Assembly: GCF_900104635.1 (NCBI RefSeq)
Contig: NZ_FNWC01000006.1
Coordinates: forward strand, 62,001 to 126,000
Direction of reading: 5' to 3'
Length of the DNA: 64,000 nt
Origin: Coprococcus phoceensis
GTDB lineage: Bacteria > Bacillota > Clostridia > Lachnospirales > Lachnospiraceae
Shown: piece after piece, positions 27,486 to 55,082 of the stretch
Layout: each line of letters opens with the position of its first letter
Position numbering within the stretch: the stretch's first letter is position 1
Translations under genes and position numbers: made by a program
Notes under the pieces: model-generated
Told to the model about the DNA's origin: nothing
What the model saw: only the letters and a program-made list of their open reading frames with translations
The model's database searches: none

Positions 27486-28953
27486 TTAAGTAGTTGCGTC
27501 AATCTCGTACACATCGAAGGTGTCCGTGGGTTTTACCACGGCACGCTGCTTCTTCATGTACCGTTCCATGTCAAAGACATTTTTAGGGTCGGCGTCGGCC
27601 GTGTATCTGTAATTCGGGTGCCGGGTGAGGTCGTACTTGTCCGAAAGGAACGGGCGCACGCCCCGCAGCATGAAAATACACTTGCCGCCGTCCATCACTG
27701 CCAATTCGTCCTGGGTCATCAACTCCTTTCCTAATTTCTGATAACTGAGGCCGTGGGAAACCTGGCTGCCCCGGTTTTCGGACTGGTTATAGAGATCAAT
27801 GGTCTCTTTCCCCAGCAGCTCCGAAATTTCCTTGAGCGTGGATTTCTCCTTGCCTCCCAAAAACAAGGTGCTGTCACAGTTACCGACGATGGTATCTGCC
27901 GCGTCCTTGTAGATGGTCTTTAACTGGCTCTGCGACTGCAAAATAATAGAAGCCGATATTTCACGGCTTCGGATGGTGGCGATCAGCTTATCGAAGTTCG
28001 GTATCTGGCCGATGTTGGCAAACTCGTCCAGAATCAGACGGACATGGACGGGCAGCCGCCCACCGTAGAAGTCATCCGCCTTGTCGCAGAGCAGATTGAA
28101 AAGCTGACTATACATGAGGGCGGCCACGAAATTGAAAGTGCTGTCTGTATCTGACAGGATCACAAACAGCGCCGTCTTTTGGTCGCCCAGGGTATCCAGT
28201 TCCAGCTCGTCATATTCCATCAGGTCCCGCAGCTCCTTGATATCGAAGGGAGCAAGCCGGGCACCGCAGGAAATGAGGATGGATTTTAAGGTTTTGCCCG
28301 CCGCCATCTTGAATTTGCGGTACTGCTTGACGGCGAAGTGGTCCGGCTCCCGTTCCTCCAACTGAGAAAAGAGCAAGTCCACCGGGCTTTGATAGGTTTC
28401 GTCGTCCTCTCTGGCTTCACTGGCATTGATAAGGTCCAGAAGTGTGATGAAGTTCTTTTCTTCCTCCGTGGCCTCGTACCAGATGTAGCCAATCAGCGCG
28501 GAATAATAGAGGCGTTCCGCTTTGACCCAGAAATCTTCCGAAGATTTTTCGCCTTCGCCCTTCGTGTTCATAATCAGGGCGTTCACCAGTTTTAAGATAT
28601 CCTTCTCTGACCGAATGTAGGCCAGTGGGTTGTATCTCATGGATTTTCGGAAGTTTATCAGATTGAGGCACTTGATACGGTATTTCTTCCGCTCCAGGAA
28701 AGTGCCGATCTCCGGCAGCAAGGTTCCTTTCGGATCGGTGCAGACATAGGACGAATGGGCTTGCAGCAGCGACGGCTTACAGAAGAACCGCGTCTTGCCG
28801 CTGCCGGAACCGCCGATCACCAGAATGTTTTTATTTCTGGCATACTTCGGCTGCTTTGGGCGGCTCGCCATCGTGATCCGCTCCGTCTGCGTCATAGGGA
28901 TGTTCTGGAAAAAGTCCTTGTCCATGTAGGGAGCGATATCCGCCGCAGTCCCC
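27486..28953 (-). pseudogene. virD4 coupling protein, C-terminal part (interrupted by element B)
   Basis: This is the ATPase part of a CD1115-type VirD4 coupling protein. It has Walker A GGSGSGKTRFF, the PKGTLLPEIG region, Walker B-like LILDEFANIG and ILQSQSQL. The reading frame continues upstream of the first Met (28925) as WGTAADIAPY and then meets element B at the TG core (28954-28955). The N-terminal 96 codons lie at 38138-38427. Joining the two parts at TG gives 290 + 1468 = 1758 nt, exactly 586 codons with stop, the usual length. A truncated soluble 479-aa version could still be made from the ATG at 28925. Confidence 0.88.
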
Positions 28954-28955
28954 CA
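28954..28955. other. att core (TG) at the left end of element B
   Basis: On the minus strand the junction reads CGCTTCATGGGGGACTGC: element sequence to CGCTTCA, core TG, then virD4 (GGGACTGC). Together with 38138-38139 it defines the crossover. The inferred empty site is CCCGC-TG-GGGGACT, encoding ARWGT. Confidence 0.8.
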
Positions 28956-29016
28956 TGAAGCGTTTTGTCAAGTGCTTTTCGCAATTTATTGACGCAAAAC
29001 AGGATTTTTTCAAGAG

Positions 29017-29043
29017 AAAAGCCCCATGCGGTCAACATGGGGC
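29017..29043 (-). terminator. Hairpin terminator at the end of the element B operon
   Basis: On the minus strand GCCCCATGTT pairs with the ACCGCATGGGGC side (arms GCCCCATG/CATGGGGC), followed by TTTTC. It lies about 60 bp after the RepA-like ATPase gene and close to the element end. Confidence 0.65.
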
Positions 29044-29101
29044 GAGTTGATAAAGTGAAAGTGCGAAAGTGCAAGGTGCAAAGGCTCTGCGTTTTGCACT
29101 T

Positions 29102-30985
29102 TCATTTTGCAGTTTCGGGCGGCTGCTTCTTCTTGATGAAGTTGTACCATTGACTTCCAACGCGCCTTGCGCCCAATATGCCGCCCATGCTGCGCTTGGC
29201 ATTTTGTACCGTTCTTTCGGATATTCCGGCTTCGGCTGCCGCCTTGACAATATCCTCGCTTGCCATTTCCTTACCGTCTGCAAGTAAATCGAGTATCAAC
29301 CTTTCCGCTTGCTCGGTCTTGGTTTCGGTGTTGCCGCCTGTGCCGGACAGCAGTTCATCAGCGGTAATGTCATATTCGCCTATCCATGAAAAGCCGCTTT
29401 CCGCGCCCAACGAAAACGCCATAGGCTTACCCTCCGGTGCAAGGGAAGATTTGTCGTGAATGATAACGCGCACATTCGGCTCTCGTTTCACGCGCCCTAT
29501 GAGCAGCACACTACGAGCGGCGGCTCGGAAGTCGATAGAGCCTAATCCCCGGTATGCGCTCTGACCTCCGGCAGCTTTGTTCAAGTGCCCGATAAGCACA
29601 ACGGCACACCCGGTACGCTCTGCAACTTCGGCAAGGCGGCGAAAGATAGGGCGTATTTCGTTTGCCTTGTTCATATCCGTTTTTTCGCCTACATACGCCT
29701 GTATGGGGTCAAGGATTATAAGACGCGCCCCGGTCTGCCGGATTGCCCTTTCTATGCGTTCATCGGATAAGGACAATTCCTGTTTGCCCTCGTCAATGAC
29801 AAGTACCCGGTCAAGGTCTGCGTCCGCTTCCATAAGGCGCGGCTTGACGGTATCGCCCAAACCGTCCTCTGCGGTCTGATAGATAACATTAAAAGGCTCA
29901 TGCTCTGCCATAGCCGGAAAGGGCTTGCGGTTGGTACAGGCGGCGCAAAGGCGCAGGGCAAGGGTGGTTTTTCCCTCGCCGGGGTTGCCCTGTACGATTG
30001 TTACCTTTCCAAAAGGGATATACGGCTCCCATAGCCATTCAACGGTCTGTGTGTCAACCTCGCTCATGCGGATAATTTCAACGGTTTCTTCCTGTTGCGG
30101 CTCACGCAAGCCATAGACAGCTTCGCGCAGATATTTTCCGTCTGTAATTTCCTCTTTACGCTGTAAAACCTCGTTCCAGTCTTTGAACAACGGTACAAGG
30201 CGATTGACGGTGTAGCCTTGGGGGATAATGCTGTTAAGGCGGCTGCAAGCGTCTGTCCCGGCTTTGTCGCTGTCAAGGCAGAGATAGACGGTCTTGATAT
30301 TCGGACGGTCAGAGAGAAAACGCAGCAGGGCTTTTTCACTCACGCCGCCCAATGACAGATAGCTTTGTTTCTGCCATTCCTTTTTGAACAGGCAGAGGAA
30401 AGATAACAGGTCAATGGGGGCTTCAAAGACAAAAAGCCTTTCGCCCTCGCCCCGGTAGCAGAAGTTAAAAGTCTTGTCGCTGCCTTTCACATCAAGCCGG
30501 AAGCTGCCCACCGTTCCCCGTTGGTGGGCATATCTCGGTATGCCGCTTTCATCTCTGCCGACAAATACGGCGTTATGGTGGGCGGCTTCCTCGTAGAGAT
30601 CGCCGCAGGAAAAGAAAAAGCCCGACACATCTTCATCAATGCGCCGGGCGGCTGTAAGGTAGTTCCTCGCTGTTTGGTTGTCGGGGCTTTTGGGTGGTAG
30701 TCTGAATTGCAGATAGACGGGTGGGGGTGCTTCGCCCCGTTCGCCTATCAGCATTTCAACGGCTTCAAGAAAACTTTTGCCGTAAAACTCCATGACAAAA
30801 TCAATCGGACCGCCGCCTTTGCTCTGGCTGTGCCGATACCATCTGTTTTCTCTGACCGTCAAGCTGTCGTGCCGTTTCCAACGGTACTCCTGTCCGGCGC
30901 GTTCAAGCTGTTCGCCCTGGGCTTGCAGGAATGATACAAGGTCGGTCTGATTTGCCCGGTCAATCTGTTCTTTGGTGTAGGTCAT
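29102..30985 (-). CDS. Toprim/RepA-type ATPase (replication helicase-like)
   Basis: The 627-aa protein has an N-terminal DUF3991/CHC2-like region, a Toprim domain (near 190-260; VFEAPIDLLSFL, YLCLDSDKAGTDA) and a RecA-like RepA/AAA_25 ATPase (Walker A GNPGEGKTT near 335; LIILDPIQAY). A winged-helix end follows (SERTVQNAKRSMGG). It combines primase-like and helicase-like parts, suited to copying single strands of the element after transfer. It starts in a 4-bp overlap with the relaxase gene. Confidence 0.85.
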   Translation of the reverse strand: MTYTKEQIDRANQTDLVSFLQAQGEQLERAGQEYRWKRHDSLTVRENRWYRHSQSKGGGPIDFVMEFYGKSFLEAVEMLIGERGEAPPPVYLQFRLPPKSPDNQTARNYLTAARRIDEDVSGFFFSCGDLYEEAAHHNAVFVGRDESGIPRYAHQRGTVGSFRLDVKGSDKTFNFCYRGEGERLFVFEAPIDLLSFLCLFKKEWQKQSYLSLGGVSEKALLRFLSDRPNIKTVYLCLDSDKAGTDACSRLNSIIPQGYTVNRLVPLFKDWNEVLQRKEEITDGKYLREAVYGLREPQQEETVEIIRMSEVDTQTVEWLWEPYIPFGKVTIVQGNPGEGKTTLALRLCAACTNRKPFPAMAEHEPFNVIYQTAEDGLGDTVKPRLMEADADLDRVLVIDEGKQELSLSDERIERAIRQTGARLIILDPIQAYVGEKTDMNKANEIRPIFRRLAEVAERTGCAVVLIGHLNKAAGGQSAYRGLGSIDFRAAARSVLLIGRVKREPNVRVIIHDKSSLAPEGKPMAFSLGAESGFSWIGEYDITADELLSGTGGNTETKTEQAERLILDLLADGKEMASEDIVKAAAEAGISERTVQNAKRSMGGILGARRVGSQWYNFIKKKQPPETAK

Positions 30986-32496
30986 AGGGAAATATCCTCC
31001 TTTTTGCGTCTTGGTGTTTGGTGTGTCTGTTCCTGTGTGCGCTGCTCGGCTTGCTCTACAATATCAATGCACTTTCGGATTTGCTGTAACTCCTTAACCT
31101 CGCTGCGCTTTGTTTTCAGTTCTTCATATTCGCCTGTGGATTGGGCTTTCAGTTCGTCAAATTCTTTCTGCCACTCGGACACCTTGAAAGACTTTGTACC
31201 CTCCGGCAGATTTGCGTGCAGGAAACGGTTGGCGGCGTTCCAGATAATGAGGTCGCTTTCGTGGGCTTGCTCAAATTTTTCTCTCTTTTTGCCCCATCCG
31301 TTTTTCAGCGTTTTCAGTTCATCGTGAATGGGCTTCAAGCGGTTGTAGTTGCTGCCATGCTCGATAAACTTTTCCAATGTCCTCATGCGCTTCTGCTTGG
31401 CAACAACGCTTGTATTCAGCCGCTTTGCTTCTTCATCAACAGAGGAAAGGGCAGCGTCCAAATCTTCAAGGGTAGCAATGCCCTTGCTTTGCAGATAGAC
31501 AATCGCCTTGCTGATTTTTTGCAATTCCCCGGCAGTATGCTGTTGCTGCCAGCCCTGTGAATACTTCCGGCTTTTCTCTCGTTCAATGCTCAAATACCTT
31601 GTAAGCAGCGTGGCAATATCGGGAGAGTGCGGGGCAGCTTGCAGTTGCTTCTTAGCGGCGAAAACCTCCGCAAGCCATTCTTTCAAGCTGTCGATATAGC
31701 CCCGGATTTCCCGCATAAGTCGGTTGGTCTTTTGTATCATGCGGTTGATTTCTCCCTTGTCGGTGGCTATGCCTTTCTTCTCCATTTGGGAAGCTGCAAC
31801 ACCCATGTGGACGGTGGGGAGTTCCTCAATACCACGCTCTGCATGGCTGCGGTGGTCGATACGCTCCGCGCTGCCGCTTCGCTCTAAATAGTCGTTGGCA
31901 AGGTCAGCCCACGCCTTGCGCCATAGGTCGGCGTTCTCCTGCCTGTTCCAGTCCATAAGGTCAACCTTGCGCGTCTTGTATCTGCCGCTTGGCAGCTTTA
32001 CGCGCTCCCCATTTTCGTCAAGGACATATTCCTTTTTTGACTTCGCCGCCCATGTGCCTTTTTCATCAAGGGGGCGCATAGTCAAAAGGATATGAGCGTG
32101 TGGGTTGCCGTTGCCTGTGTCGTGGATATTGAAGTCGGCGCACATTCCTTTGGAAACAAATTGAGAGGAACAGTATTCCCGGACAAGGCGGGTCTGTTCC
32201 TCTCTTGAAAGTTCAACAGGTAGGGCGATTTCGATTTCCCTCGCAAGCTGTGAGTTATTCGATTTTTCGATTTGCTCCACGCTGTTCCATAGAATAGAAC
32301 GGTCAGAGAAAGAGGGTGGGGCATGGGGCGGCAGCATGATTTCAGAATGAACAACGCCGCCTTTTCTTGTATAGTCGTGGGTCAGTCCGTCCCACTCGTT
32401 TGTCAGCTTCTCTCCGGCGCGGTAGGCTGCTGCGGCTACGGCAGATTTGCCCTTTCCCCGGCTGACAATCTTAATGCTGCAATGGTAGATTGCGAT
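30982..32496 (-). CDS. MobA/MobL relaxase (MobQ type), unusual start
   Basis: The protein (about 504 aa) has the MobQ start IAIYHCSIKIVSRGKGKSAV, an AAYRAGE motif and the metal motif NGNPHAHILLTMR, with a long charged C-terminal half. It nicks oriT of element B. No ATG or GTG lies at a proper distance from the strong GGGAGGTG site; the codon 7-8 bp after it is ATC (32494-32496), where relatives have ATG. Either ATC is used or an upstream in-frame start (up to 32703) adds 69 residues. It overlaps the ATPase gene by 4 bp. Confidence 0.8.
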   Translation of the reverse strand: MAIYHCSIKIVSRGKGKSAVAAAAYRAGEKLTNEWDGLTHDYTRKGGVVHSEIMLPPHAPPSFSDRSILWNSVEQIEKSNNSQLAREIEIALPVELSREEQTRLVREYCSSQFVSKGMCADFNIHDTGNGNPHAHILLTMRPLDEKGTWAAKSKKEYVLDENGERVKLPSGRYKTRKVDLMDWNRQENADLWRKAWADLANDYLERSGSAERIDHRSHAERGIEELPTVHMGVAASQMEKKGIATDKGEINRMIQKTNRLMREIRGYIDSLKEWLAEVFAAKKQLQAAPHSPDIATLLTRYLSIEREKSRKYSQGWQQQHTAGELQKISKAIVYLQSKGIATLEDLDAALSSVDEEAKRLNTSVVAKQKRMRTLEKFIEHGSNYNRLKPIHDELKTLKNGWGKKREKFEQAHESDLIIWNAANRFLHANLPEGTKSFKVSEWQKEFDELKAQSTGEYEELKTKRSEVKELQQIRKCIDIVEQAEQRTQEQTHQTPRRKKEDISL

Positions 32497-32514
32497 AGTA
32501 TCACCTCCCGATAC

Positions 32515-32745
32515 GGTCAACAAAACCCCATGAAAGTGAATAGCTTGCAAAGCAAGGTGTTCGCTTTCGTGGGGTACACAAAAGGGTAGACAGCGCAAGC
32601 TGTCGCAGGGAAAGTGTAGGTTTCCCTGTCGCGGCGCAAGCCGCCAATCTCTGCACAAGGCAATAATGCCCGGTGCGGAGATAAAGCCCTCGGCAGAGCG
32701 CACACGCCCGTTAGGGTGTATAAGTGCGCCCTTGTGTGCAAGGGT
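32515..32745. other. Candidate oriT of element B with RSF1010-like nic
   Basis: Between the relaxase and DUF3847 genes lie several inverted repeats: CCCCATGAAAG with CTTTCGTGGGG (32525-32575 area) and ACAGC-GCAA-GCTGT (32593-32606 area). Near 32721-32732 the plus strand reads TAAGTGCGCCCT, identical to the nic region of RSF1010/MobQ plasmids as I recall it. An imperfect hairpin (ACACGCCC...GGGTGT) lies just before it, as in RSF1010. A MobQ relaxase is encoded next door. Confidence 0.65.
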
Positions 32746-33046
32746 AATTCTTCGGTGTCGCTTCTCCGGCTCGTTTTCTCAAAAACTCCTGCGCTTTGTC
32801 GCTGAAAACCGCGGTGTAGAGGAAGTCGCGGGCTTCCTGTTCTGACATATCAATGAGTGCCGGGACAAGGCTTTCAAGGTAGCCGCCCCGCGAACAAAGA
32901 CGGTGGTTGCGCTCCTTGCGCTTCTCAATGGCAAGTTTGCGGTCAAGCATTTTGTTCCTGTTCTCATACTGCCGGATTTTCTTCTGTGTCAGTTCCATTT
33001 CGGCGTTACATTCCTCGATGGTGGTCGGTGGTTTTTTCTTCGACAT
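32711..33046 (-). CDS. DUF3847 protein
   Basis: This 111-aa basic helical protein (MSKKKPPTTIEECNAEMEL) fits DUF3847, found upstream of MobQ relaxases in mobilizable elements. GGAGGGCTACC precedes its ATG. It contains a coiled coil and a basic patch (RKERNHRLCSRGGYLESL). It may act as a relaxosome partner. The nic-like sequence overlaps its last codons, so coding and oriT functions share DNA. Confidence 0.72.
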   Translation of the reverse strand: MSKKKPPTTIEECNAEMELTQKKIRQYENRNKMLDRKLAIEKRKERNHRLCSRGGYLESLVPALIDMSEQEARDFLYTAVFSDKAQEFLRKRAGEATPKNYPCTQGRTYTP

Positions 33047-33067
33047 GGTAGCCCTCCTTTTTGATTT

Positions 33068-33724
33068 TTAGTAAAAGAAAAGGGCGGCTACTTCGGTTTG
33101 GAAATAGTCGCCCTGTTGGGGAATTATGTTATTGTTATTTGAATAATTATCGATAATCACATTATCAGTAGCCTGTGCTTCTCTCACAAATGCAACAGCG
33201 TTTTCTTCTCCGTATGGATAGACATGGATTGTTTCCTTTCCAACAGGGTCAGCAGACCAATCATTGCTATCATACACCTTGAAAGTCAATTCAATATCTG
33301 TGTATTCAACAATACCATTTTCCTCAAGAGTATCGGTGCTAAAGTTGATTTCTTCGTTAGCCTTTTTGCCAGCAGCTACCTCGCTTGCAAACATTGGATC
33401 GCACTGAACACCATTGATGGAAGCACTCTCGACAGAGAACATATAGGTTTTCTCTGTGGACTTGTTTTCAAGCTGTGCTTTCAGAGTGTAGCCCCACATA
33501 TTATCGGGGTCGATTTCGGTAATTTTTACCGCACACTCTGCGTTGTCAATGGCAACAACTTCCTCAAATACGATTTGATTTTCGGTGTTGTCGTTTTCGG
33601 TGCTTTCTTCATTTTGAGAAGAAGCGGGGGCATCGTCAGATGCGTCAGGTGTCGCTTCTCCGCCACAAGCTGCAAGAGATAGCACTAAAGCAAGCGAAAG
33701 AAGCAAGGTTACAAGTTTTTTCAT
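33068..33724 (-). CDS. Lipoprotein of unknown function on element B
   Basis: The 218-aa protein begins with a lipoprotein signal ending LSLAAC (Cys20), an acidic Ser/Glu/Asn linker and a beta-rich domain (about 55-180; SVESASINGVQCDPMFASEV). The domain resembles DUF4352/DUF5067-type surface lipoproteins in style only. It sits on the cell surface. It lies between DUF3847 and erm(B) and is not part of either known module. The last 40 residues (NNNNIIPQQGD) look irregular and may have been altered at a junction. Role unknown. Confidence 0.7.
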   Translation of the reverse strand: MKKLVTLLLSLALVLSLAACGGEATPDASDDAPASSQNEESTENDNTENQIVFEEVVAIDNAECAVKITEIDPDNMWGYTLKAQLENKSTEKTYMFSVESASINGVQCDPMFASEVAAGKKANEEINFSTDTLEENGIVEYTDIELTFKVYDSNDWSADPVGKETIHVYPYGEENAVAFVREAQATDNVIIDNYSNNNNIIPQQGDYFQTEVAALFFY

Positions 33725-33784
33725 TCCATTCCCTCCGTTATTAAAAAGTGTAACTTTCCAAATTTAAAAAAGCGACTCATAGAA

Positions 33785-34522
33785 TTATTTCCTCCCGTTA
33801 AATAATAGATAACTATTAAAAATAGACAATACTTGCTCATAAGTAATGGTACTTAAATTGTTTACTTTGGCGTGTTTCATTGCTTGATGAAACTGATTTT
33901 TAGTAAACAGTTGACGATATTCTCGATTGACCCATTTTGAAACAAAGTACGTATATAGCTTCCAATATTTATCTGGAACATCTGTGGTATGGCGGGTAAG
34001 TTTTATTAAGACACTGTTTACTTTTGGTTTAGGATGAAAGCATTCCGCTGGCAGCTTAAGCAATTGCTGAATCGAGACTTGAGTGTGCAAGAGCAACCCT
34101 AGTGTTCGGTGAATATCCAAGGTACGCTTGTAGAATCCTTCTTCAACAATCAGATAGATGTCAGACGCACGGCTTTCAAAAACCACTTTTTTAATAATTT
34201 GTGTGCTTAAATGGTAAGGAATATTCCCAACAATTTTATACCTCTGTTTGTTAGGGAATTGAAACTGTAGAATATCTTGGTGAATTAAAGTGACACGAGT
34301 ATTCAGTTTTAATTTTTCTGACGATAAGTTGAATAGATGACTGTCTAATTCAATAGACGTTACCTGTTTACTTATTTTAGCCAGTTTCGTCGTTAAATGC
34401 CCTTTACCTGTTCCAATTTCGTAAACGGTATCGGTTTCTTTTAAATTCAATTGTTTTATTATTTGGTTGAGTACTTTTTCACTCGTTAAAAAGTTTTGAG
34501 AATATTTTATATTTTTGTTCAT
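33785..34522 (-). CDS. erm(B): 23S rRNA (adenine-N6) dimethyltransferase ErmB
   Basis: This 245-aa protein matches the known ErmB sequence over its full length as far as I can recall. It has the SAM site [10 protein letters not shown] and the catalytic NIPYH. It methylates A2058 of 23S rRNA and gives resistance to macrolides, lincosamides and streptogramin B. GC is clearly lower than in neighbouring genes, so it was acquired separately. The normal leader-peptide/attenuator region is absent (see the upstream interval), so expression is probably constitutive. Like its neighbours it is on the minus strand. Confidence 0.97.
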
Positions 34523-34823
34523 GTAATCTCTCCTGAAGTGATTAGTGGGAATTTGTACCCCTTATCGATACAAATTCCCCGTAGGCGCTAGGGACCTCTT
34601 TAGCTTCTTGGAAGCTGTCAGTAGTATATCTAATAATTTATCTCCATTCCCTTTAGTAACGTGTACTTTCCTGTAAACGCATTTTATCGACAAATTAGCC
34701 GGGATATAAACGAATATTTACATTTCAAGACTTGAAAAACGCCGTCTGAAGAAGTATAATATTAAATACCTATAAGCAATAGGCGGTTTACAGGAAAGTA
34801 CACCTTTCTGTAAAACCGCCTAT
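34523..34823. promoter_or_regulatory. erm(B) upstream region without leader peptide, with hairpins
   Basis: The ribosome site (AGGAGAG) of erm(B) is present. Directly upstream a hairpin pairs GGGAATTTGTA with TACAAATTCCC (34547-34557, 34569-34579). No short leader ORF of the standard erm(B) type (MLVFQMRNVDK...) is present on the minus strand. Farther up, an exact 18-bp inverted repeat (GTGTACTTTCCTGTAAAC, 34661-34678; complement 34786-34803) flanks 107 bp. An ATP-rich promoter-like TTACTA...TAAATT lies between. No gene is seen. Confidence 0.7.
34781..34821. terminator. Hairpin after the resolvase gene
   Basis: AGGCGGTTTACAG (34781-34793) pairs with CTGTAAAACCGCCT (34808-34821) around a short loop, directly after the resolvase stop. 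It could end resolvase transcription and limit read-through to erm(B). It also contains one copy of the 18-bp inverted repeat. Confidence 0.55.
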
Positions 34824-35438
<615 letters not shown>

Positions 35439-35505
35439 TTATCCTCCTGTTCGTTTTACATAGACATCAACCGTCCTTACCTAATAATTTTACTGTATCT
35501 TTGTG

Positions 35506-35808
35506 TCATGGCTTGCTTTTCCCGGCTGAAATACCATGCTTCTTTGCATAGTCGCTTGCCGCCTGTCTGCGTTCCTCGCTGTATGGTGCGGTCAGACGGA
35601 AAGAGAAGCGTCCCTTTGCAATCTCAAACTCCATACAGCCCGTTTCCGGGTCGCTGTCGGTCAGCTTACAGACAGAGGGGAAGCGGCGGCTGTACGCGGT
35701 CAGCCTGTTCTTCAAGTCGGTGTTGTGGGTGCGGATATGGATAAGGGGGTCTTTCTCGTCAAACCAAATATCGGTGGTCTTTTCCTGCTTTTTCAGTCCT
35801 GTTTTCAT
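35506..35808 (-). CDS. Conserved small protein of mobilizable elements, unknown
   Basis: The ATG at 35808 (MKTGLKKQEKTTDIWFDEKD) follows AAAGGAG by 6 bp and gives 100 aa. The protein contains IHIRTHNTDLKNRLTAYSRR and a C-terminal basic part. The frame is open farther up to 36009, including a CPYC pair, so a 167-aa form is possible. Relatives are carried by Clostridia mobile elements. Function unknown. Confidence 0.55.
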   Translation of the reverse strand: MKTGLKKQEKTTDIWFDEKDPLIHIRTHNTDLKNRLTAYSRRFPSVCKLTDSDPETGCMEFEIAKGRFSFRLTAPYSEERRQAASDYAKKHGISAGKSKP

Positions 35809-35962
35809 AAACTCTCCTTTCTGCGCCCCTGTTACGCAGTAGGGGCATTTTTCGGGTGTTTTCTTCGGCTCTTGACTTGGGAAAAACGGCGTTTTTTCAA
35901 TAGAAAATGCTCTGGCGATACATTCCTCGTCCAGAGTGTTCCAATCGTCAAATATTCCGTTT

Positions 35963-36157
35963 TTACGGCTCTTGACCGTCAGACGCAGAAAAATGCGAAT
36001 AGTCGGCAAGTATCGCTTTCAGCAGCTTGTCGCGGAATGTTTCTGCGCTTCTGTGATTGAAAAACAACTCCGCAACGATGGTCTGTCCGTTCCGCTGTGT
36101 TGTGATGATACCATCCGGCTGCTTCTGCGCGGTGGTTGTGGTTTTCTTTTCTGTCAT
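35963..36157 (-). CDS. TnpW-like small transposon protein
   Basis: The ATG at 36157 gives 64 aa (MTEKKTTTTAQKQPDG...). The core RNGQTIVAELFFNHRSAETF and DKLLKAILADY fit the small TnpW-type proteins next to large serine recombinases. GGAGTGACCC precedes the ATG. It is separated from the recombinase gene by a terminator. It could modulate recombination; this is not shown. Confidence 0.65.
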   Translation of the reverse strand: MTEKKTTTTAQKQPDGIITTQRNGQTIVAELFFNHRSAETFRDKLLKAILADYSHFSASDGQEP

Positions 36158-36183
36158 TGGGTCACTCCTTCCTTTGGGTGCAA

Positions 36184-36216
36184 AAAAAGGATTTCCCATA
36201 GTTGGAAAATCCCTTT
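36184..36216 (-). terminator. Rho-independent terminator after the large recombinase
   Basis: On the minus strand AAAGGGATTTTCC pairs with GGAAATCCTTT around AACTATG, followed by TTTTTTT. It lies 20 bp after the recombinase stop. Confidence 0.85.
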
Positions 36217-36236
36217 CTGCTGTCGGTTATTCTGTT

Positions 36237-38084
36237 TTACGATACGGGCAGCGCAGCGGCTTGCGCCTTTCGCTTTGCCCGATATTCCCGCGCCTTGATG
36301 CGTTCATACTCCCGGCGTTTTTCAAGGTTTTTCGCCCGGTATTCCTTTGAGTAGTTCCGATGATAAGCGCGGCTCTTTTCCTTTTGGGCTTCTTCGATTT
36401 TCTCCCGCATTTGCCGGATTTCTTCCTCTGTCGGCTCTGCAAGCTGTGTCAGTTCGTTTTCAAACTTGCCGATATAGCTGAAATATATCCCGATATGCTG
36501 AACAGCTTGTTTTGCCCTTTTCTTATCGCGCTCATGCACTTCAATTCTGCTGATAAATTCATTGAGAATGGCGGGGGTAAGGTCGGTAAAGGCGGCGTAG
36601 CGTTCTATCAGCTTCAAAAACTTATGCGCCCATCCTCCTGCGTCCTCAAACGCGGATAACTGTTCTTTGAGTTCTGCAAGTTCCGCTTTCAGCGTATAGT
36701 ATTCCTCCGAATATTTCTGTGACATTTGCTCGTATCGGTCTTGTGGGATAGCACCGAGGGCGTTATCCTCGTAGAGTTTATTCAGCACCTTGTCAATCTG
36801 TTCAAGGCGTGTTGTAATTTGCGGAATACGCTTCTGCTGTTTTTTGCTCTTGTCCGTCTGCTGCATATCAAGGTTTTTTCGGACTAATGCTTCAAATTCC
36901 TCCCGGTTGCTTATGGAGTATTCTGCAACTTTTTTCAGAACATCCGCGATAGTCTGCATGACTAAATCAGCGTCTATGATGTGCGGGGAATTGCATTTGG
37001 GATTTTTGGCTTTGCCCTTGTGGTACTCGCTGCAAAAGGCAACATGACGCTTGCCGCCGTTCCTGTAATCTATGCGAATGTGCATTTTTGCGCCGCAGTC
37101 TTTACAGAACATCAAGCCCGACAAAGGGTGGATTTCTCCGTCCCCGTTAGGGCGTCTGACAGGCGCGTTTTCCAAAATCCGCTGTACGGTTTCAAAGTCG
37201 GCGCGGTCGATAATCGGCTCATGCACATTCTCGGTTATCTGCCATTCGCTTTTATCTACATAGTGGTTGCGCTTGTCCCGAAAATGCTTTGTGGTCTTGA
37301 AATTGACAACATCACCACAATACTCCTGCCTTGTGAGTATCTTGGTTAAGGTTGCTTTGTTCCATTTATAGCGATTTTCCTCGTTCAGCGGTCTGCTTTT
37401 CGCTGTCCCTCTGTCGTGCTGTTTGAGGTAGAACGTAGGCGTGAGGATTTGCTCGTTTTTGAGATATACGGCAATTTGGTTTCTGTTCTTCCCGCCGATA
37501 AACAGACGGAAAATCAAGCGTACCACTTCGGCGGCTTCCTCGTCGATTATCCAAAAATCCTTGTTGTTCGGGTCTTTCATATATCCGTATGGGGCTTCGG
37601 TGGCGATGGGTTTGCCGCTTGCACCCTTGGTCCTGATACCCGTTTTTACTTTCTTGCTGATGTCCTTTGCGTACCACTCCGACATGATATTGATAAAGGG
37701 CGCAAACTCCAATGTATCGGGATTGTCGCTGTCTATGCCGTTATTGACCGCGATAAAGCGGACATTGTTCCGTCTGAATACCTCCATTGCATTGCCGACT
37801 TGGAGATAATCACGCCCCCAGCGCGTCAGGTCTTTCATAATGCAGACGCCTATTTTTCCGTTTTCCACATCCTCCATCATGCGGGAATAGGCAGAGCGGT
37901 CAAAGAACCTGCCGCTTTCGTCATCGTCAATGTAGTGCCGGATATTGGTTAATCTCTGCTGTTGGGCGTACCGTTCCAGAAATGCCTTTTGGTTTACAAT
38001 GCTGTTGCTCTCGCCGCCATCTCTGTCCTCGTCCCCGACGGAAAGGCGGGAGTAAAGGGCTGTAATTTTATTATATTCGTTCAT
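36237..38084 (-). CDS. Large serine recombinase (TnpX/TndX-like)
   Basis: The protein (615 aa from the ATG at 38084, GGAGG 7 bp upstream) starts with a resolvase domain: catalytic Ser in ALYSRLSVGDEDR, MKDLTRWGRDYLQ. A recombinase domain (KPIATEAPYGYMKDP), a zinc ribbon (CKDCGAKMHIR...CSEYHKG...C), a coiled coil and a DUF4368-type basic C-terminus follow. It integrates and excises element B. It lies 54 bp from the element's right end. The deduced crossover dinucleotide is TG; TnpX and TndX use GA as I recall. That sets its specificity apart from the best-studied relatives. Confidence 0.9.
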   Translation of the reverse strand: MNEYNKITALYSRLSVGDEDRDGGESNSIVNQKAFLERYAQQQRLTNIRHYIDDDESGRFFDRSAYSRMMEDVENGKIGVCIMKDLTRWGRDYLQVGNAMEVFRRNNVRFIAVNNGIDSDNPDTLEFAPFINIMSEWYAKDISKKVKTGIRTKGASGKPIATEAPYGYMKDPNNKDFWIIDEEAAEVVRLIFRLFIGGKNRNQIAVYLKNEQILTPTFYLKQHDRGTAKSRPLNEENRYKWNKATLTKILTRQEYCGDVVNFKTTKHFRDKRNHYVDKSEWQITENVHEPIIDRADFETVQRILENAPVRRPNGDGEIHPLSGLMFCKDCGAKMHIRIDYRNGGKRHVAFCSEYHKGKAKNPKCNSPHIIDADLVMQTIADVLKKVAEYSISNREEFEALVRKNLDMQQTDKSKKQQKRIPQITTRLEQIDKVLNKLYEDNALGAIPQDRYEQMSQKYSEEYYTLKAELAELKEQLSAFEDAGGWAHKFLKLIERYAAFTDLTPAILNEFISRIEVHERDKKRAKQAVQHIGIYFSYIGKFENELTQLAEPTEEEIRQMREKIEEAQKEKSRAYHRNYSKEYRAKNLEKRREYERIKAREYRAKRKAQAAALPVS

Positions 38085-38137
38085 GTGCATACCTCCTGCG
38101 TCCACATAGTTTTCCTTACAGTTAAGATTATGCACCA

Positions 38138-38139
38138 CA
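38138..38139. other. att core (TG) at the right end of element B
   Basis: On the minus strand virD4 reads GCCCGC, then the core TG, then element B (TGGTGCATAATC). Read-through in element DNA adds CGA and a stop to the N-terminal fragment. With the left core it defines the crossover of element B. Confidence 0.8.
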
Positions 38140-38427
38140 GCGGGCAGAACCATACTCGATCCCGTGACGGTACTTCTTAGCGTTCTTGCCTTTCAGGTAG
38201 ACCGCCATGCGAAGGATCACCGCACCGGCTATGCCGATCAGCAGGTCCGTGGGATGGAAACTGAGCCACGGGGAGGAAAGGGCTGTCGTGAAGCCGTCCC
38301 CAATGGAGAGCAGCTTGCCGGAGAGGTCAGCACCGGGCGCAAGCCGGAAAGCCTGTGCCAGCTTATCGAAGGGATACACGAACAGAAGATACGGAAGGTT
38401 CAGCAAAAACAATTTTTTCATATTCAT
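38138..38427 (-). pseudogene. virD4 coupling protein, N-terminal membrane part (interrupted by element B)
   Basis: The fragment begins MNMKKLFLLNLPYLLFVYPF and has two membrane segments (about residues 5-20 and 60-80), then KYRHGIEYGSAR, the usual lead-in to the VirD4 ATPase. Element B cuts it after codon 96; the frame stops a few codons inside B. It starts in an ATGA overlap with the PcfB-like gene. The C-terminal part lies 9.2 kb away at 27486-28953. While B is present a separate membrane fragment of 99 aa would be made. Confidence 0.88.
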
Positions 38428-38915
38428 CTCTGCACGCTCCGATCTTTGACCTTTACTTTCTCCCGGTCAATGGTACGGTGTTCCGTTTTCTCTGCCGCCT
38501 GTTCCTTCGCCTGGGTCAGTCGATCCCGGATGGAGGGCTTTTTCTCACGGCTCATTTTGCGGCTGGCAAACTCCTGAAATGCCGCTGTGATGGCATCCGC
38601 GTCCCGGCTTTTGAAAAAGACCAGGTAACGGGGTTGCTCTGCAACGGTGTCCTTCTTCAATGCAAAATCCACATGGTATTTCTTCGCCACATGGGAGAAA
38701 GCCTTGATATTCTTGTCGCTGATCTCGATATTGGCAAGACCGGCGTTCTGGCTGGCAAGCTGTTTAAGGCTCTGCCTGCCGCGGTAGATTTTGGGCTTCT
38801 GGCTTTTCTGGATTTCCTCCAGGAACTTTTTGACGGCCTTTTCAAAGACCTGCTCACTTAGCTTGGCTCCGTCAACAATGAGCGTCACGGCGCCCCGCGT
38901 TACTTCCTCCTGCAT
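38424..38915 (-). CDS. PcfB-like accessory protein (DUF3801)
   Basis: This 163-aa protein fits DUF3801/PcfB, a relaxosome partner of the coupling protein in Gram-positive conjugation. The central part (YHVDFALKKD, PRYLVFFKSRDADAIT) looks like the small alpha/beta fold of that family. Its tail KKPSIRDRLTQAKEQAAEK matches the tails of the two ArdA-type proteins at 14629 and 16468. It follows the RepA-like gene directly (stop and start are joined as TAAATG) and overlaps virD4. Confidence 0.8.
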   Translation of the reverse strand: MQEEVTRGAVTLIVDGAKLSEQVFEKAVKKFLEEIQKSQKPKIYRGRQSLKQLASQNAGLANIEISDKNIKAFSHVAKKYHVDFALKKDTVAEQPRYLVFFKSRDADAITAAFQEFASRKMSREKKPSIRDRLTQAKEQAAEKTEHRTIDREKVKVKDRSVQR

Positions 38916-52402: not shown

Positions 52403-52450
52403 ATAGCGATAGGTAACTTTTTGATGTTATCTCCAAGTTTTCCCCCGCTT

Positions 52451-52486
52451 CACACCGTACATGAAACTTTCGCTTCATACGGCGTT
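52451..52486 (-). ncRNA. Domain V of the group II intron
   Basis: On the minus strand the stem begins CGCCGTATGAAGCGAAAG and closes with TTTCATGTACGGTGTG, a GAAA-type tetraloop hairpin of the bacterial domain V pattern. It is the catalytic core for splicing. A domain VI hairpin with AACTT and AAGTT arms follows toward 52410. Confidence 0.75.
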
Positions 52487-52512
52487 CCATCATATCCAAA
52501 TAGATTTATAAG

Positions 52513-54339
52513 TTATTTCCCAGTTATTGTCTGGTATCCGTAATTCGTCCGTATTCTGTTCAGTTTTTTCTTCTGCTGACTATTAAGAACATAACCTTTT
52601 AACAGTGATTTTGCTTCGTCTGCTGATTCTGTTAGGATTGCCTTTGCAATGGGAATTTCCACAAATGCCAGATTAGAATATCTGTCAAGGTTATCTCCTT
52701 TGTCTGATTTGTGAATACATATCAGAGTGGACGGAGTTCCTCGACGATTCATTACATAGCAGTTGCCTTGTTGTGCGATATATGCCGAAATACGATTGTC
52801 GTTAAACTCTACGCTATCGGCAGGGTTTTCATTTTCCAACAACGCTCGGATTTCTTCTTTTGTTACAACTACAACGTCCTCATGCACCTTGTTTCTCCCT
52901 TGCTTTGTAAAATTACAAATATCTTGCGAGAAATTCATAGGATTTTTGTGTTGTACTCCTTGAATCGGCAATAGCGGATTATCCGCAATCATCACTATTT
53001 TTGTTTTTGGTCTGATTCCTTTTGTCCTGCTCTGAAATTCTGAACTTGTACTTTCAAATGGAACTGATTTTGCAATGTTCCTTAAACGGATTCGTATGGT
53101 CGGTAAGAGAGCGTAACTTACTTCTGTCAGGTTGTTATATACGTTAGTTGCTATGCAGTAGTAATTCTGCATACCGATAACTGTCAGATTATATCTGCTG
53201 ATATTGAAGCCAGTCGTATGTCTGGCTATATCTTTTACCTTTAACTTTAGATTTGTTTTCGCTTTCTTTAATGCTTTTTGGTTCATATCTGTTTTGGCAA
53301 CATAACCGTGTTTCGTTCTTCCTTTTGGAATGACTTTGATTTTGAACCCCAGAAAATCTGATGAATTTTTCTTCAGATTTACTACCTTTGATTTCTCTGG
53401 ACTGATTTCTAATTTCAGCCTTTTATTAAGAAAATCTACGGTACTGTGGTAAAATCTTTGTGCTTCTCCATAGGTTGAACACATGATTTTAAAATCATCA
53501 GCGTAACGTACAATAAAACCGCTTTTCAGTTTGGTATATTTCTTTGCGTATTGAAGCCACCCATTTTTACTGCGGTTCTTCGGCTGGAATGTTTCCCACT
53601 GACTGCTTACCCACCAGTCTAATTCATTAAGGACTATGAGGGAGAGCAGTGGACTTAACAGACCGCCTTGTGGCGTTCCTTTTTCTGGGACACCCTCGCC
53701 GTCAATTTCGGCTTTCAGCATTTTGCTGATAATGCAAATCAATCTTTTATCCCGAATACCAAGTGTCCAGATTTGTTTTAATAGTTTTCCATGATTGACA
53801 TTATCGAAAAATCCTTTAATGTCTACGTCAACACAGTAATGATATTTTGATAAATTTATCAGTGTCGTTACTCTGCTGACTGCATGGTGGGCACTTCGAT
53901 TCGCACGGAATCCATAGGAATGATTATGGAACTTTGGTTCGCATATCGGCTCTAGGACTTGCAGGATACATTGTTGTACCAGCCTGTCCCAGATACACGG
54001 AATCCCCAATGGACGCATTTTATCGCTCCCAGCTTTTGGAATGAAAACACGTCTGACTGATTTGGGGCGGTAGTTGCTAAGGCTTTCCCGAACGGTAGCA
54101 ACAATCTCAGCATTGCTGAGTTGTTTTATATCGTCTATCGTCATTCCATCCGTTCCAGCCGTTTTACTGCCACTGTTTGATTTCAGATTACGGTAAGCTA
54201 AACAAATATTTTGTTCCGAACCAATAATTTCAAGTAACTTATAAAAGTTATTACCGTTCTTGCTCTGTGCGTATAACTCGTCATAAATATGTTGCATATC
54301 ATAATACTCGTTATAGCGGAGCTTGTTTTTCTTTAGCAT
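52513..54339 (-). CDS. Group II intron reverse transcriptase/maturase (LtrA-like)
   Basis: The ATG at 54339 (GGAGG 9 bp upstream) gives 608 aa. The RT domain includes the IPKAGSDKMRPLGIP and KGFFDNVNHGKL regions, GTPQGGLLSPLLS and the catalytic YADD (VRYADDFKIM). Domain X (maturase) lies near 370-460. The C-terminal nuclease region (YIAQQGNCYVMNRRG, IHKSDKGDN...NLAFVE) resembles an HNH domain in which the second Cys pair and first His seem altered, so DNA cutting may be weak or lost. Confidence 0.9.
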   Translation of the reverse strand: MLKKNKLRYNEYYDMQHIYDELYAQSKNGNNFYKLLEIIGSEQNICLAYRNLKSNSGSKTAGTDGMTIDDIKQLSNAEIVATVRESLSNYRPKSVRRVFIPKAGSDKMRPLGIPCIWDRLVQQCILQVLEPICEPKFHNHSYGFRANRSAHHAVSRVTTLINLSKYHYCVDVDIKGFFDNVNHGKLLKQIWTLGIRDKRLICIISKMLKAEIDGEGVPEKGTPQGGLLSPLLSLIVLNELDWWVSSQWETFQPKNRSKNGWLQYAKKYTKLKSGFIVRYADDFKIMCSTYGEAQRFYHSTVDFLNKRLKLEISPEKSKVVNLKKNSSDFLGFKIKVIPKGRTKHGYVAKTDMNQKALKKAKTNLKLKVKDIARHTTGFNISRYNLTVIGMQNYYCIATNVYNNLTEVSYALLPTIRIRLRNIAKSVPFESTSSEFQSRTKGIRPKTKIVMIADNPLLPIQGVQHKNPMNFSQDICNFTKQGRNKVHEDVVVVTKEEIRALLENENPADSVEFNDNRISAYIAQQGNCYVMNRRGTPSTLICIHKSDKGDNLDRYSNLAFVEIPIAKAILTESADEAKSLLKGYVLNSQQKKKLNRIRTNYGYQTITGK

Positions 54340-55082
54340 GGTCTGTACCCTCCTTGTTTGCAGGAGCAAGTACATCTCTTAGTCTTACTCGAACCCATAC
54401 CATTTTTCTTAGTAATTCTATTCTTCATATGACTAGTGGCTATCCCTCCACCGCTTGTTATCACGGTTTCATAGGTACTGTGCCACCACTCTCACTGACA
54501 TTAACACACCTTATATCATTGCTAATCTCACAATAACTTTCTGATGTGAACACTTCACAGACAGTAAAATCTCCATGTTGTCAGCTTTCAACGTTCCAAA
54601 CACACTATCTGTACATATATCCTTAGGTTTCCTCTATAAGCCTGCTACCTTGATAACGCCTTTAACGTTATATGGATTTTCATAAATGCGGAGTCTTACT
54701 CACCCACAGTAGCGACACTGTTTGTGTCACTGGACATTTCTATCCAGCCCCGATATAGACCTGTACATTCAAGGATTCGTCAGTAGACCTCTCATCTACA
54801 TTCTAACCATAGATATTTTATAGACTTCCGGCATATAGGACACAACGCCCACCTCTGGGAATCTTTCGTCAGCATTATCTGTTACGGTGTCTGTCTGCCG
54901 ACTTCACCGAGCTTCTGACAGAGCCTTGTTTACTCAAGTTTCTGCCAGTCAGAGTATTAAAGTAGCCTTTCAGGGCGTTACCCCGTCATTCGACTATTCG
55001 TGTGTTTAGTTCTCCAACACACATTAAATATTGATTTAATGAAGTGCTGTGCCTACTCTTTTCAAGTAGGAACGTTTCGCAC

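What the first reader, a model, noticed from the sequence alone, without database searches (positions are those of the whole stretch)
27486..38427. Element B sits in the ICE A virD4 gene, and its precise loss would restore the frame
The virD4 gene of ICE A is split into 290 nt and 1468 nt around a 9.18-kb element. Only TG is shared at the two junctions. Joining there gives ARWGT across the joint and exactly 586 codons. A large serine recombinase with its gene 54 bp from one end can do this. While B is present the ICE lacks a coupling protein; when B leaves, transfer function returns. This looks like a reversible switch on ICE A transfer, like prophage excision from com or sigK genes, though it may simply be an insertion site.
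Basis: partly seen in the sequence, partly recalled or inferred. Interest (0 to 1): 0.85.

Follow-up and report, generated by a model that had tools for sequence, protein, structure and literature searches.

The report
Resistance element lodged in conjugation gene
A small mobile element carrying an erythromycin-resistance gene sits inside the DNA-pump gene of a larger mobile element in a gut bacterium; it belongs to a widespread family that mostly lands on one particular codon of that gene, so this is a recognised kind of parasite-on-parasite rather than a new kind of switch.

Summary
The virD4 (coupling protein) gene of a Tn1549/CTn4-like ICE is split into 290 and 1468 nt around a 9,184-bp element, with only TG repeated. 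The element is an integrative mobilizable element (IME): large serine recombinase, TnpW, MobQ relaxase, primase/helicase, plus erm(B). Because erm(B) is present I kept the two gene pieces apart.

Of 80 loci with a close recombinase relative, 69 have the element at the same virD4 Trp codon (5 more are consistent stubs, 6 lie elsewhere). The same element sits at that codon in three other species with divergent virD4. Near-identical virD4 genes are unoccupied: 111 of the 120 listed proteins are 585 aa, none has split-gene length. The element is a recent, site-specific visitor, not a fixed part of the ICE.

The reversible switch is not shown here and was published as a hypothesis in 2017 (PMC5357655); frame conservation alone does not support it. 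Additions: the element's ends carry two half-promoters that reach 17-nt spacing only in the circle, with the same layout in a distant family at another virD4 site; and 20 of 37 checkable occupied genes are interrupted again. New member of a known kind.

The parts
38138..38427 (-). 5' piece of virD4 (96 codons plus TG), N-terminal part of the coupling protein
   Evidence: overlaps the DUF3801 gene 38424-38915 by 4 nt
27486..28953 (-). 3' piece of virD4 (488 codons), the ATPase part
28954..38137 (-). element B, 9,184 bp erm(B)-carrying IME
   Evidence: boundaries set by near-identical copies in L009, L010, L068
38138..38139 (-). TG core at the recombinase end (within the virD4 Trp codon)
   Evidence: TG in 70 of 70 left ends, window included
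28954..28955 (-). TG core at the other end
   Evidence: TG in 43 of 43 right ends, window included
36237..38090 (-). large serine recombinase (Resolvase, Recombinase, Zn ribbon, DUF4368); start at 38090 or 38084 rather than the ORF-caller's 38153
   Evidence: AGGAGG upstream of the ATG seen
38127..38132 (-). -10-like hexamer CATAAT, 5 nt inside the core; half of a promoter
   Evidence: CATAAT in 69 of 70 left ends, CATACT in 1
28966..28971 (-). -35-like hexamer TTGACA, 10 nt from the core at the other end; other half of the promoter
   Evidence: 43 of 43 right ends
35963..36199 (-). TnpW-like small protein (78 aa)
   Evidence: PF14202, 38 bits, cutoff 25
35506..36009 (-). ORF of unknown function (167 aa as called), with relatives in many of the fetched loci
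   Evidence: (no family)
34824..35435 (-). small serine resolvase (203 aa)
   Evidence: PF00239
33785..34522 (-). erm(B), 23S rRNA methyltransferase (cargo)
   Evidence: NF012220, 565.3 bits, cutoff 525
33068..33724 (-). lipoprotein-like ORF, altered at its 3' part beside a deletion
32711..33046 (-). DUF3847 protein
30982..32703 (-). MobA/MobL (MobQ) relaxase; family matches start at residue 70 or 86 of the called ORF
29102..30985 (-). primase/helicase-like replication protein (DUF3991, Toprim, AAA_25)
29021..29043 (-). terminator-like hairpin with T tail near the element's end
   Evidence: a relaxed search finds one in 15 of 42 relatives, so not a family feature

Best explanation
Element B is a serine-recombinase IME that lands mostly on the Trp codon of the conserved GSARWG motif of virD4 in CD1115-type (Tn1549/CTn4-like) ICEs, and here carries erm(B). 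Shown by sequence: exact insertion at one dinucleotide, recombinase gene read in the same direction as virD4, relaxase and replication genes but no mating-pore gene among the ORFs scanned, repeated arrival in divergent ICEs, and two half-promoter-like hexamers at its ends. Inferred: the recombinase cuts the element out as a circle; in the circle the two halves meet at 17-nt spacing and drive the recombinase, favouring insertion in a new host; in the integrated state the recombinase gene, 47-53 nt behind the cut virD4 and without a -35-like hexamer at that spacing, is transcribed by read-through from the ICE's conjugation operon; the relaxase then uses a VirD4/T4SS supplied by this ICE when unoccupied or by another ICE in the cell. 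For the ICE the element is a parasite that interrupts its coupling protein while present.
For: Site: 69 of 80 recombinase relatives (the best 80 of 184, mostly 80-100% identical) begin right after virD4 codon 96; 5 more contigs start in a consistent stub. Same element in other ICEs: L009, L010, L068. Independent histories: 144 of 170 pairs with recombinases under 3% different sit in virD4 5' parts over 25% different; Spearman 0.073. L071 and L082 have virD4 5' parts 4% and 2% different from ours but a 14-15%-different family member at the same codon. Unoccupied copies; in 391 class genomes, 50 of the 81 rows tallied span all three sites and 3 start at this one. Half-promoters; background for an 11/12 match at spacer 17 is 40 in 2,727,900 positions; the virD4 hexamer lying at the -35 position scores 1 of 6 in 69 of 69. 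Genes. Precedents: Tn6104 excision with a 2-bp repeat (PMC3158075, passages); IMEs in traG (PMC5704250, PMC5357655).
Against: No circle or empty site of this strain was observed. 6 of 80 relatives are at other sites (5 of them with a whole right end), so specificity is strong, not absolute. The hexamers may instead, or also, be recombinase-binding sequence, and a shared ancestry makes the 69 and 43 cases non-independent; in the site-3 family 8 of 13 left ends match the -10 consensus at only 4 of 6. Other spacings for a -35 in the integrated state were not scored. Read-through and relaxase/T4SS pairing are untested.
Confidence: 0.85

Rival explanations
1. Regulated switch: the element leaves when the ICE's conjugation operon is induced, so that loss and regain of the coupling protein is a controlled on/off state of ICE A.
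For: Recombinase gene co-directional with and right behind the cut gene in the 69 site-1 loci; no locus of the 80 showed the opposite arrangement. At the two further recurrent sites a second recombinase (in three loci only a fragment) follows in the same direction in 15 of 16 loci. Half-promoters look incomplete when integrated. Published as a hypothesis.
Against: Listed near-identical virD4 genes are unoccupied; no shared history of element and virD4; 20 of 37 occupied genes interrupted again; the same layout is expected of a selfish element; orientation is fixed by the asymmetric core, so the 69 are not independent; other VirD4 genes in the cell. In S. suis, excision of one ICE-lodged IME was not seen (PMC7168690, passages).
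Confidence: 0.25
2. Dead insertion: the element is stuck and the ICE is on the way to decay.
For: The window copy lacks about 0.88 kb and 0.72 kb present in L009 and L010; many occupied virD4 genes carry further insertions; transfer of Tn6103, which holds three such insertions, was not detected.
Against: Recombinase, relaxase and primase frames and both ends are complete and nearly identical to copies in other species, which speaks for recent movement; both virD4 pieces are open and match intact copies.
Confidence: 0.2
3. Assembly artefact or chimeric contig.
For: None found.
Against: Same junctions in three named genomes and family-wide.
Confidence: 0.01

Closest known systems
IMEs in traG/virD4, maff2 and snf2 of Tn5252-superfamily ICEs of streptococci (IME_Sco1050_traG_site1/site2; PMC5357655, PMC5704250)
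   Same: serine integrase, relaxase, short direct repeat, insertion inside the coupling-protein gene at more than one internal site, disruption of the gene
   Different: hosts here are mainly Clostridia; MobQ relaxase and erm(B); whether the codon is the same as in those elements was not tested
Tn6104 in Tn6103 of C. difficile R20291 (PMC3158075)
   Same: serine-recombinase mobilizable element with a mobA/mobL gene and 2-bp repeat in a conjugative-transposon gene that the review PMC5704250 lists as traG
   Different: 15.6 kb, other cargo; excision shown there by PCR; sequence not compared here
Tn4451/Tn4453 (TnpX)
   Same: large serine recombinase, 2-bp core, promoter formed in the circle (title of Lyras & Rood 2000, seen only in reference lists); a TnpW-type small protein (that Tn4451 encodes TnpW is recalled)
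   Different: low target specificity (GA) and MobV relaxase in Tn4451 (PMC5704250) against a mostly fixed virD4 site and MobQ here
IME_Rho_tet (PMC12904643)
   Same: gut-bacterial IME with resistance cargo; 45% of its recreated sites lie in MAFF2-encoding ORFs
   Different: other target gene, cargo and recombinase; only passages read
Prophage and skin elements in comK and sigK
   Same: serine-recombinase element interrupting a gene (gene names recalled; PMC5357655 cites the prophage cases as analogy)
   Different: those are resident elements with regulated excision (recalled); here the interrupted gene is itself on a mobile element and is unoccupied in the listed relatives

Membership tests
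IME (integrative and mobilizable element) | own integrase plus relaxase, no mating-pore genes | tested here: met
   LSR and MobQ relaxase; no T4SS family in the nine element ORFs scanned
IME (integrative and mobilizable element) | excises and is mobilized in trans | not testable with these tools
   no reads or experiments available
serine-integrase IMEs that target traG/virD4 | recurrent insertion at a fixed internal site of the ICE coupling-protein gene | tested here: met
   69 of 80 loci at one codon, plus 5 consistent stubs; 6 elsewhere
serine-integrase IMEs that target traG/virD4 | very short direct repeat at the ends | tested here: met
   TG in 70 of 70 left and 43 of 43 right ends
Tn4451/Tn4453 family | TnpX-type recombinase and TnpW (recalled as features of the family) | tested here: inconclusive
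   large serine recombinase with DUF4368 and a TnpW match; no direct comparison with TnpX was made
Tn4451/Tn4453 family | low-specificity insertion at GA | tested here: not met
   TG core, 74 of 80 consistent with one codon
Tn4451/Tn4453 family | MobV relaxase | tested here: not met
   MobQ, NF041496, 277.5 bits, cutoff 200
Tn4451/Tn4453 family | promoter for the recombinase formed at the circle joint | tested here: inconclusive
   both halves conserved at distances adding to 17 nt; activity untested
regulated gene-interrupting switch (sigK/comK type) | stable, inherited association of element with the interrupted gene | tested here: not met
regulated gene-interrupting switch (sigK/comK type) | excision regulated by need for the gene | not testable with these tools
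   no expression data

The most novel reading that the evidence does not exclude
A guild of distantly related IME lineages has settled on one design for living in an ICE's coupling-protein gene. Each picks a different conserved motif of virD4, lands with its recombinase gene directly behind and co-directional with the cut 5' part, and splits a promoter so that it is complete only in the circle. In the integrated state the recombinase would then be switched on by the ICE's own conjugation transcript, so that the IME is free and mobilizable exactly in cells where the ICE pump becomes available, and several such passengers can stack in one gene.
Probability: 0.3. Interest if true: 0.75.

Novelty: new member of a known kind. 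Interest (0 to 1): 0.45.

Why it matters
It shows how a macrolide-resistance gene can move among gut Clostridia: not as ICE cargo proper but as a passenger that uses a conserved motif of an ICE conjugation gene as its address, giving one 9-kb element access to very different ICEs in different genera. It also makes the 2017 idea of IME excision tied to conjugation more testable, because the half-promoter layout predicts where recombinase transcripts should start in each state.

Tried and rejected
Plasmid collection search with the element: no record covers 80% of it; the 20 rows listed of 1,279 cover 10%, the erm(B) stretch. Viral contigs gave 2 relatives, not pursued. A terminator at the element's end as a family feature was rejected: 4 of 43 with a perfect stem, 15 of 42 with a relaxed rule. 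An in-frame start codon supplied by the element end for the 3' piece was considered by eye and rejected: the ATG there is out of frame. The length distribution of homologues as a census of split genes failed because only the best 120 of 7,999 are listed. In one search three of the 69 loci were dropped because their contig begins inside the 5' part. In one search left ends at site 3 were listed only if the hexamer scored at least 4 of 6, and right ends only if TTGACA was present; one search prints the six fetched loci's junctions without these filters. L110 and others with long insertions may hold more than one element, so their left and right ends need not belong together. No structure prediction was run: nothing turned on it.
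Full report
What is there. All coding parts lie on the minus strand. virD4 of a Tn1549/CTn4-like ICE is cut after 96 codons plus two bases; its 3' piece (488 codons) resumes after 9,184 bp. The 3' piece belongs to NCBI's CD1115-type VirD4 family; CD1115 lies within CTn4 of C. difficile 630 (CD1091-CD1118, table passage). Around it lie other ICE genes: Maff2, TrbL/VirB6, PrgI and a TraG-P-loop ATPase downstream, DUF3801 and DUF6017 upstream. The insert holds a large serine recombinase with DUF4368, TnpW, a small resolvase, erm(B), a lipoprotein-like ORF, DUF3847, a MobQ relaxase and a primase/helicase-like protein. This is an IME with a resistance cargo. Since a broken mobile gene stands beside a resistance gene, I did not put the pieces together.

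Is the junction real? Three named genomes carry the same element. Ruminococcus turbiniformis (L009), Lactonifactor longoviformis (L010) and Pseudoflavonifractor sp. MSJ-37 (L068) match the window element from its first to its last base at 99.9-100% nucleotide identity in the aligned blocks. L009 and L010 have about 0.88 kb, and all three about 0.72 kb, that the window copy lacks; at the first of these places L068 has about 0.2 kb in place of 0.1 kb of the window copy. Their virD4 5' parts are 80, 67 and 43% identical to ours at protein level, so the point where nucleotide identity starts marks the boundary.

Where does the family go? A scan of genome contigs with the recombinase gave 184 relatives, of which the best 80 loci were kept; what follows is about these close relatives. 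In 69 of 80 the element starts directly after virD4 codon 96, with TG as core. In 5 more (L017, L043, L049, L057, L065) the contig begins in a short stub that fits virD4; only L057 is long enough to be clear. In 6 (L041, L070, L076, L080, L086, L087) the flank is something else; 5 of those 6 have a complete right end too, so they are secondary-site insertions. The 42 relatives whose right junction could be read resume virD4 at the same base. The crossover lies in the Trp codon of the GSARWG motif. In the 24 bases before the core, eight positions are identical in all 70 left flanks (window included), while the base next to the core is any of the four.

Does the element travel with its ICE? No sign of it. 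Over 67 loci, distances between virD4 5' parts and between recombinases are uncorrelated (Spearman 0.073; 53 of 500 permutations as high). Of 170 pairs with recombinases under 3% different, 144 sit in virD4 5' parts more than 25% different. Two genomes (L071, L082) carry virD4 5' parts 4% and 2% different from ours with a 14-15%-different family member at the same codon.

Is the site usually empty? Of 7,999 scored relatives of the 3' piece the best 120 were listed; 111 are 585 aa, and none has the length of a gene split here (about 479-493 aa). Eighty contain exactly our 488-residue piece, and in the 103 with a 96-residue 5' part it differs from ours at 2 to 8 positions. One such protein is named as from Holdemania massiliensis (P0087). 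In a sample of 391 genomes of the class, 132 had a match; among 81 listed rows of at least 60% identity, 50 span all three insertion sites, 3 start at site 1 (one is ours), 5 at site 2, 9 start and 6 end at site 3, and 8 are other fragments (limits in Tried and rejected). So intact copies are common and occupied site 1 is a minority. The window's own genome has two further uninterrupted close VirD4 genes (L090, 617 aa; L091, 628 aa), one broken one (L092/L094) and two distant ones (L093, L095).

More than one landing pad. In 37 loci with a right junction and at least 1,500 nt beyond it, 16 have an uninterrupted 3' part, 1 runs into an assembly gap, and 20 are interrupted again: 9 at residues 74-79 of the 3' piece, 7 at residues 230-233, 4 elsewhere (one of these, L028, by only about 0.3 kb). 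In 15 of the 16 at the two recurrent places a second, distant large serine recombinase, or in three loci a fragment of one, follows in the same direction as virD4. Two internal traG sites are already on record for streptococcal IMEs.

A promoter in two halves. At the recombinase end, CATAAT lies 5 nt inside the core in 69 of 70 loci and CATACT in one. At the other end TTGACA lies 10 nt before the core in 43 of 43. Added to the 2-nt core this gives 17 nt, but only when the ends meet. In the integrated state the virD4 hexamer at that spacing matches TTGACA at 1 of 6 positions in 69 of 69. A match of 11 of 12 at spacer 17 occurs at 40 of 2,727,900 positions in the fetched loci. The layout recurs in a 74%-identical member at site 1 (L111) and in distant recombinases (40-43% identical in the fetched loci) at site 3 with a GG core: TTGACA 10 nt before the core in the 5 loci whose right end could be read, and a -10-like hexamer 5 nt after it in 13 left ends, scoring 5 of 6 in five and only 4 of 6 in eight (filters noted above). 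For Tn4451/Tn4453 a promoter formed in the circle is the title finding of Lyras & Rood 2000, which I saw only as a reference entry. These hexamers could also serve recombinase binding, and shared descent means the many copies are few independent cases.

How it most likely works. Shown: exact, oriented, repeated insertion at one codon, and spread independent of the ICE. Inferred: the recombinase is made by read-through from the conjugation operon while integrated and from the assembled promoter in the circle; the MobQ relaxase then uses a VirD4/T4SS. A selfish element needs nothing more. A switch that serves the ICE would need evidence that excision follows ICE induction, which I do not have.

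Against what is known. Coluzzi et al. 2017 (PMC5357655; section 25 read whole, other passages) report that 12 of 16 streptococcal serine-integrase IMEs sit in conserved genes (traG, maff2, snf2) of Tn5252-superfamily ICEs, and propose excision on induction of conjugation by analogy with prophages. The 2017 review (PMC5704250, passages) lists Tn6104 and IME_Sco1050_traG_site1/2. The 2011 C. difficile study (PMC3158075, passages) shows excision of Tn6104 with a 2-bp repeat and no detected transfer of its carrier. The 2019 S. suis study (PMC7168690, passages) reports IMEs in traG of Tn1549-related ICEs. The 2022 recombinase survey (PMC10083194, passages) links DUF4368 recombinases to multi-targeting, whereas this DUF4368 family is mostly specific. 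I found no description of this erm(B) element or of the two-half promoter in virD4 IMEs in the listings or the passages I read; these searches cover openly licensed papers only.

Noticed in passing
window 41265-62679 (minus): A Tn916-like ICE (integrase, TcpC, lysozyme/NlpC, VirB4-like AAA_10, Rep_trans relaxase, FtsK-like coupling protein, DUF961) abuts ICE A.
   Followed up: partly
window 52403-55014 (minus): A group II intron with reverse transcriptase lies inside the VirB4-like AAA_10 gene of the Tn916-like ICE (Rfam RF02004 and RF00029; RVT_1).
   Followed up: no
L002 (own genome C7:2476979-2478559): Another large serine recombinase (38-40% identical) sits directly upstream of a maff2 fragment (residues 38-71) and virB6 of a different ICE, suggesting an IME in maff2.
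   Followed up: no
L092/L094 (own genome C7:1612284-1616272): A further virD4 of this kind in the genome is broken by another insertion.
   Followed up: no
L038, L040, L061, L067, L024, L048: Site-2 elements carry -10-like hexamers (TATAAT, TATATT, TATACT) shortly inside their left ends; their right ends were not in hand, so a split promoter there is untested.
   Followed up: no
L076: A family member in Bifidobacterium boum lies outside virD4, in a stretch that by eye resembles the target motif, hinting at how secondary sites are chosen.
   Followed up: no
window element B: Relative to L009/L010 the window copy has two deletions whose joints overlap by 3 and 6 nt, one of them altering a lipoprotein-like gene.
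   Followed up: partly
P0001, P0002: Two VirD4-like proteins of 687 and 746 aa contain internal duplications; possibly assembly products.
   Followed up: no
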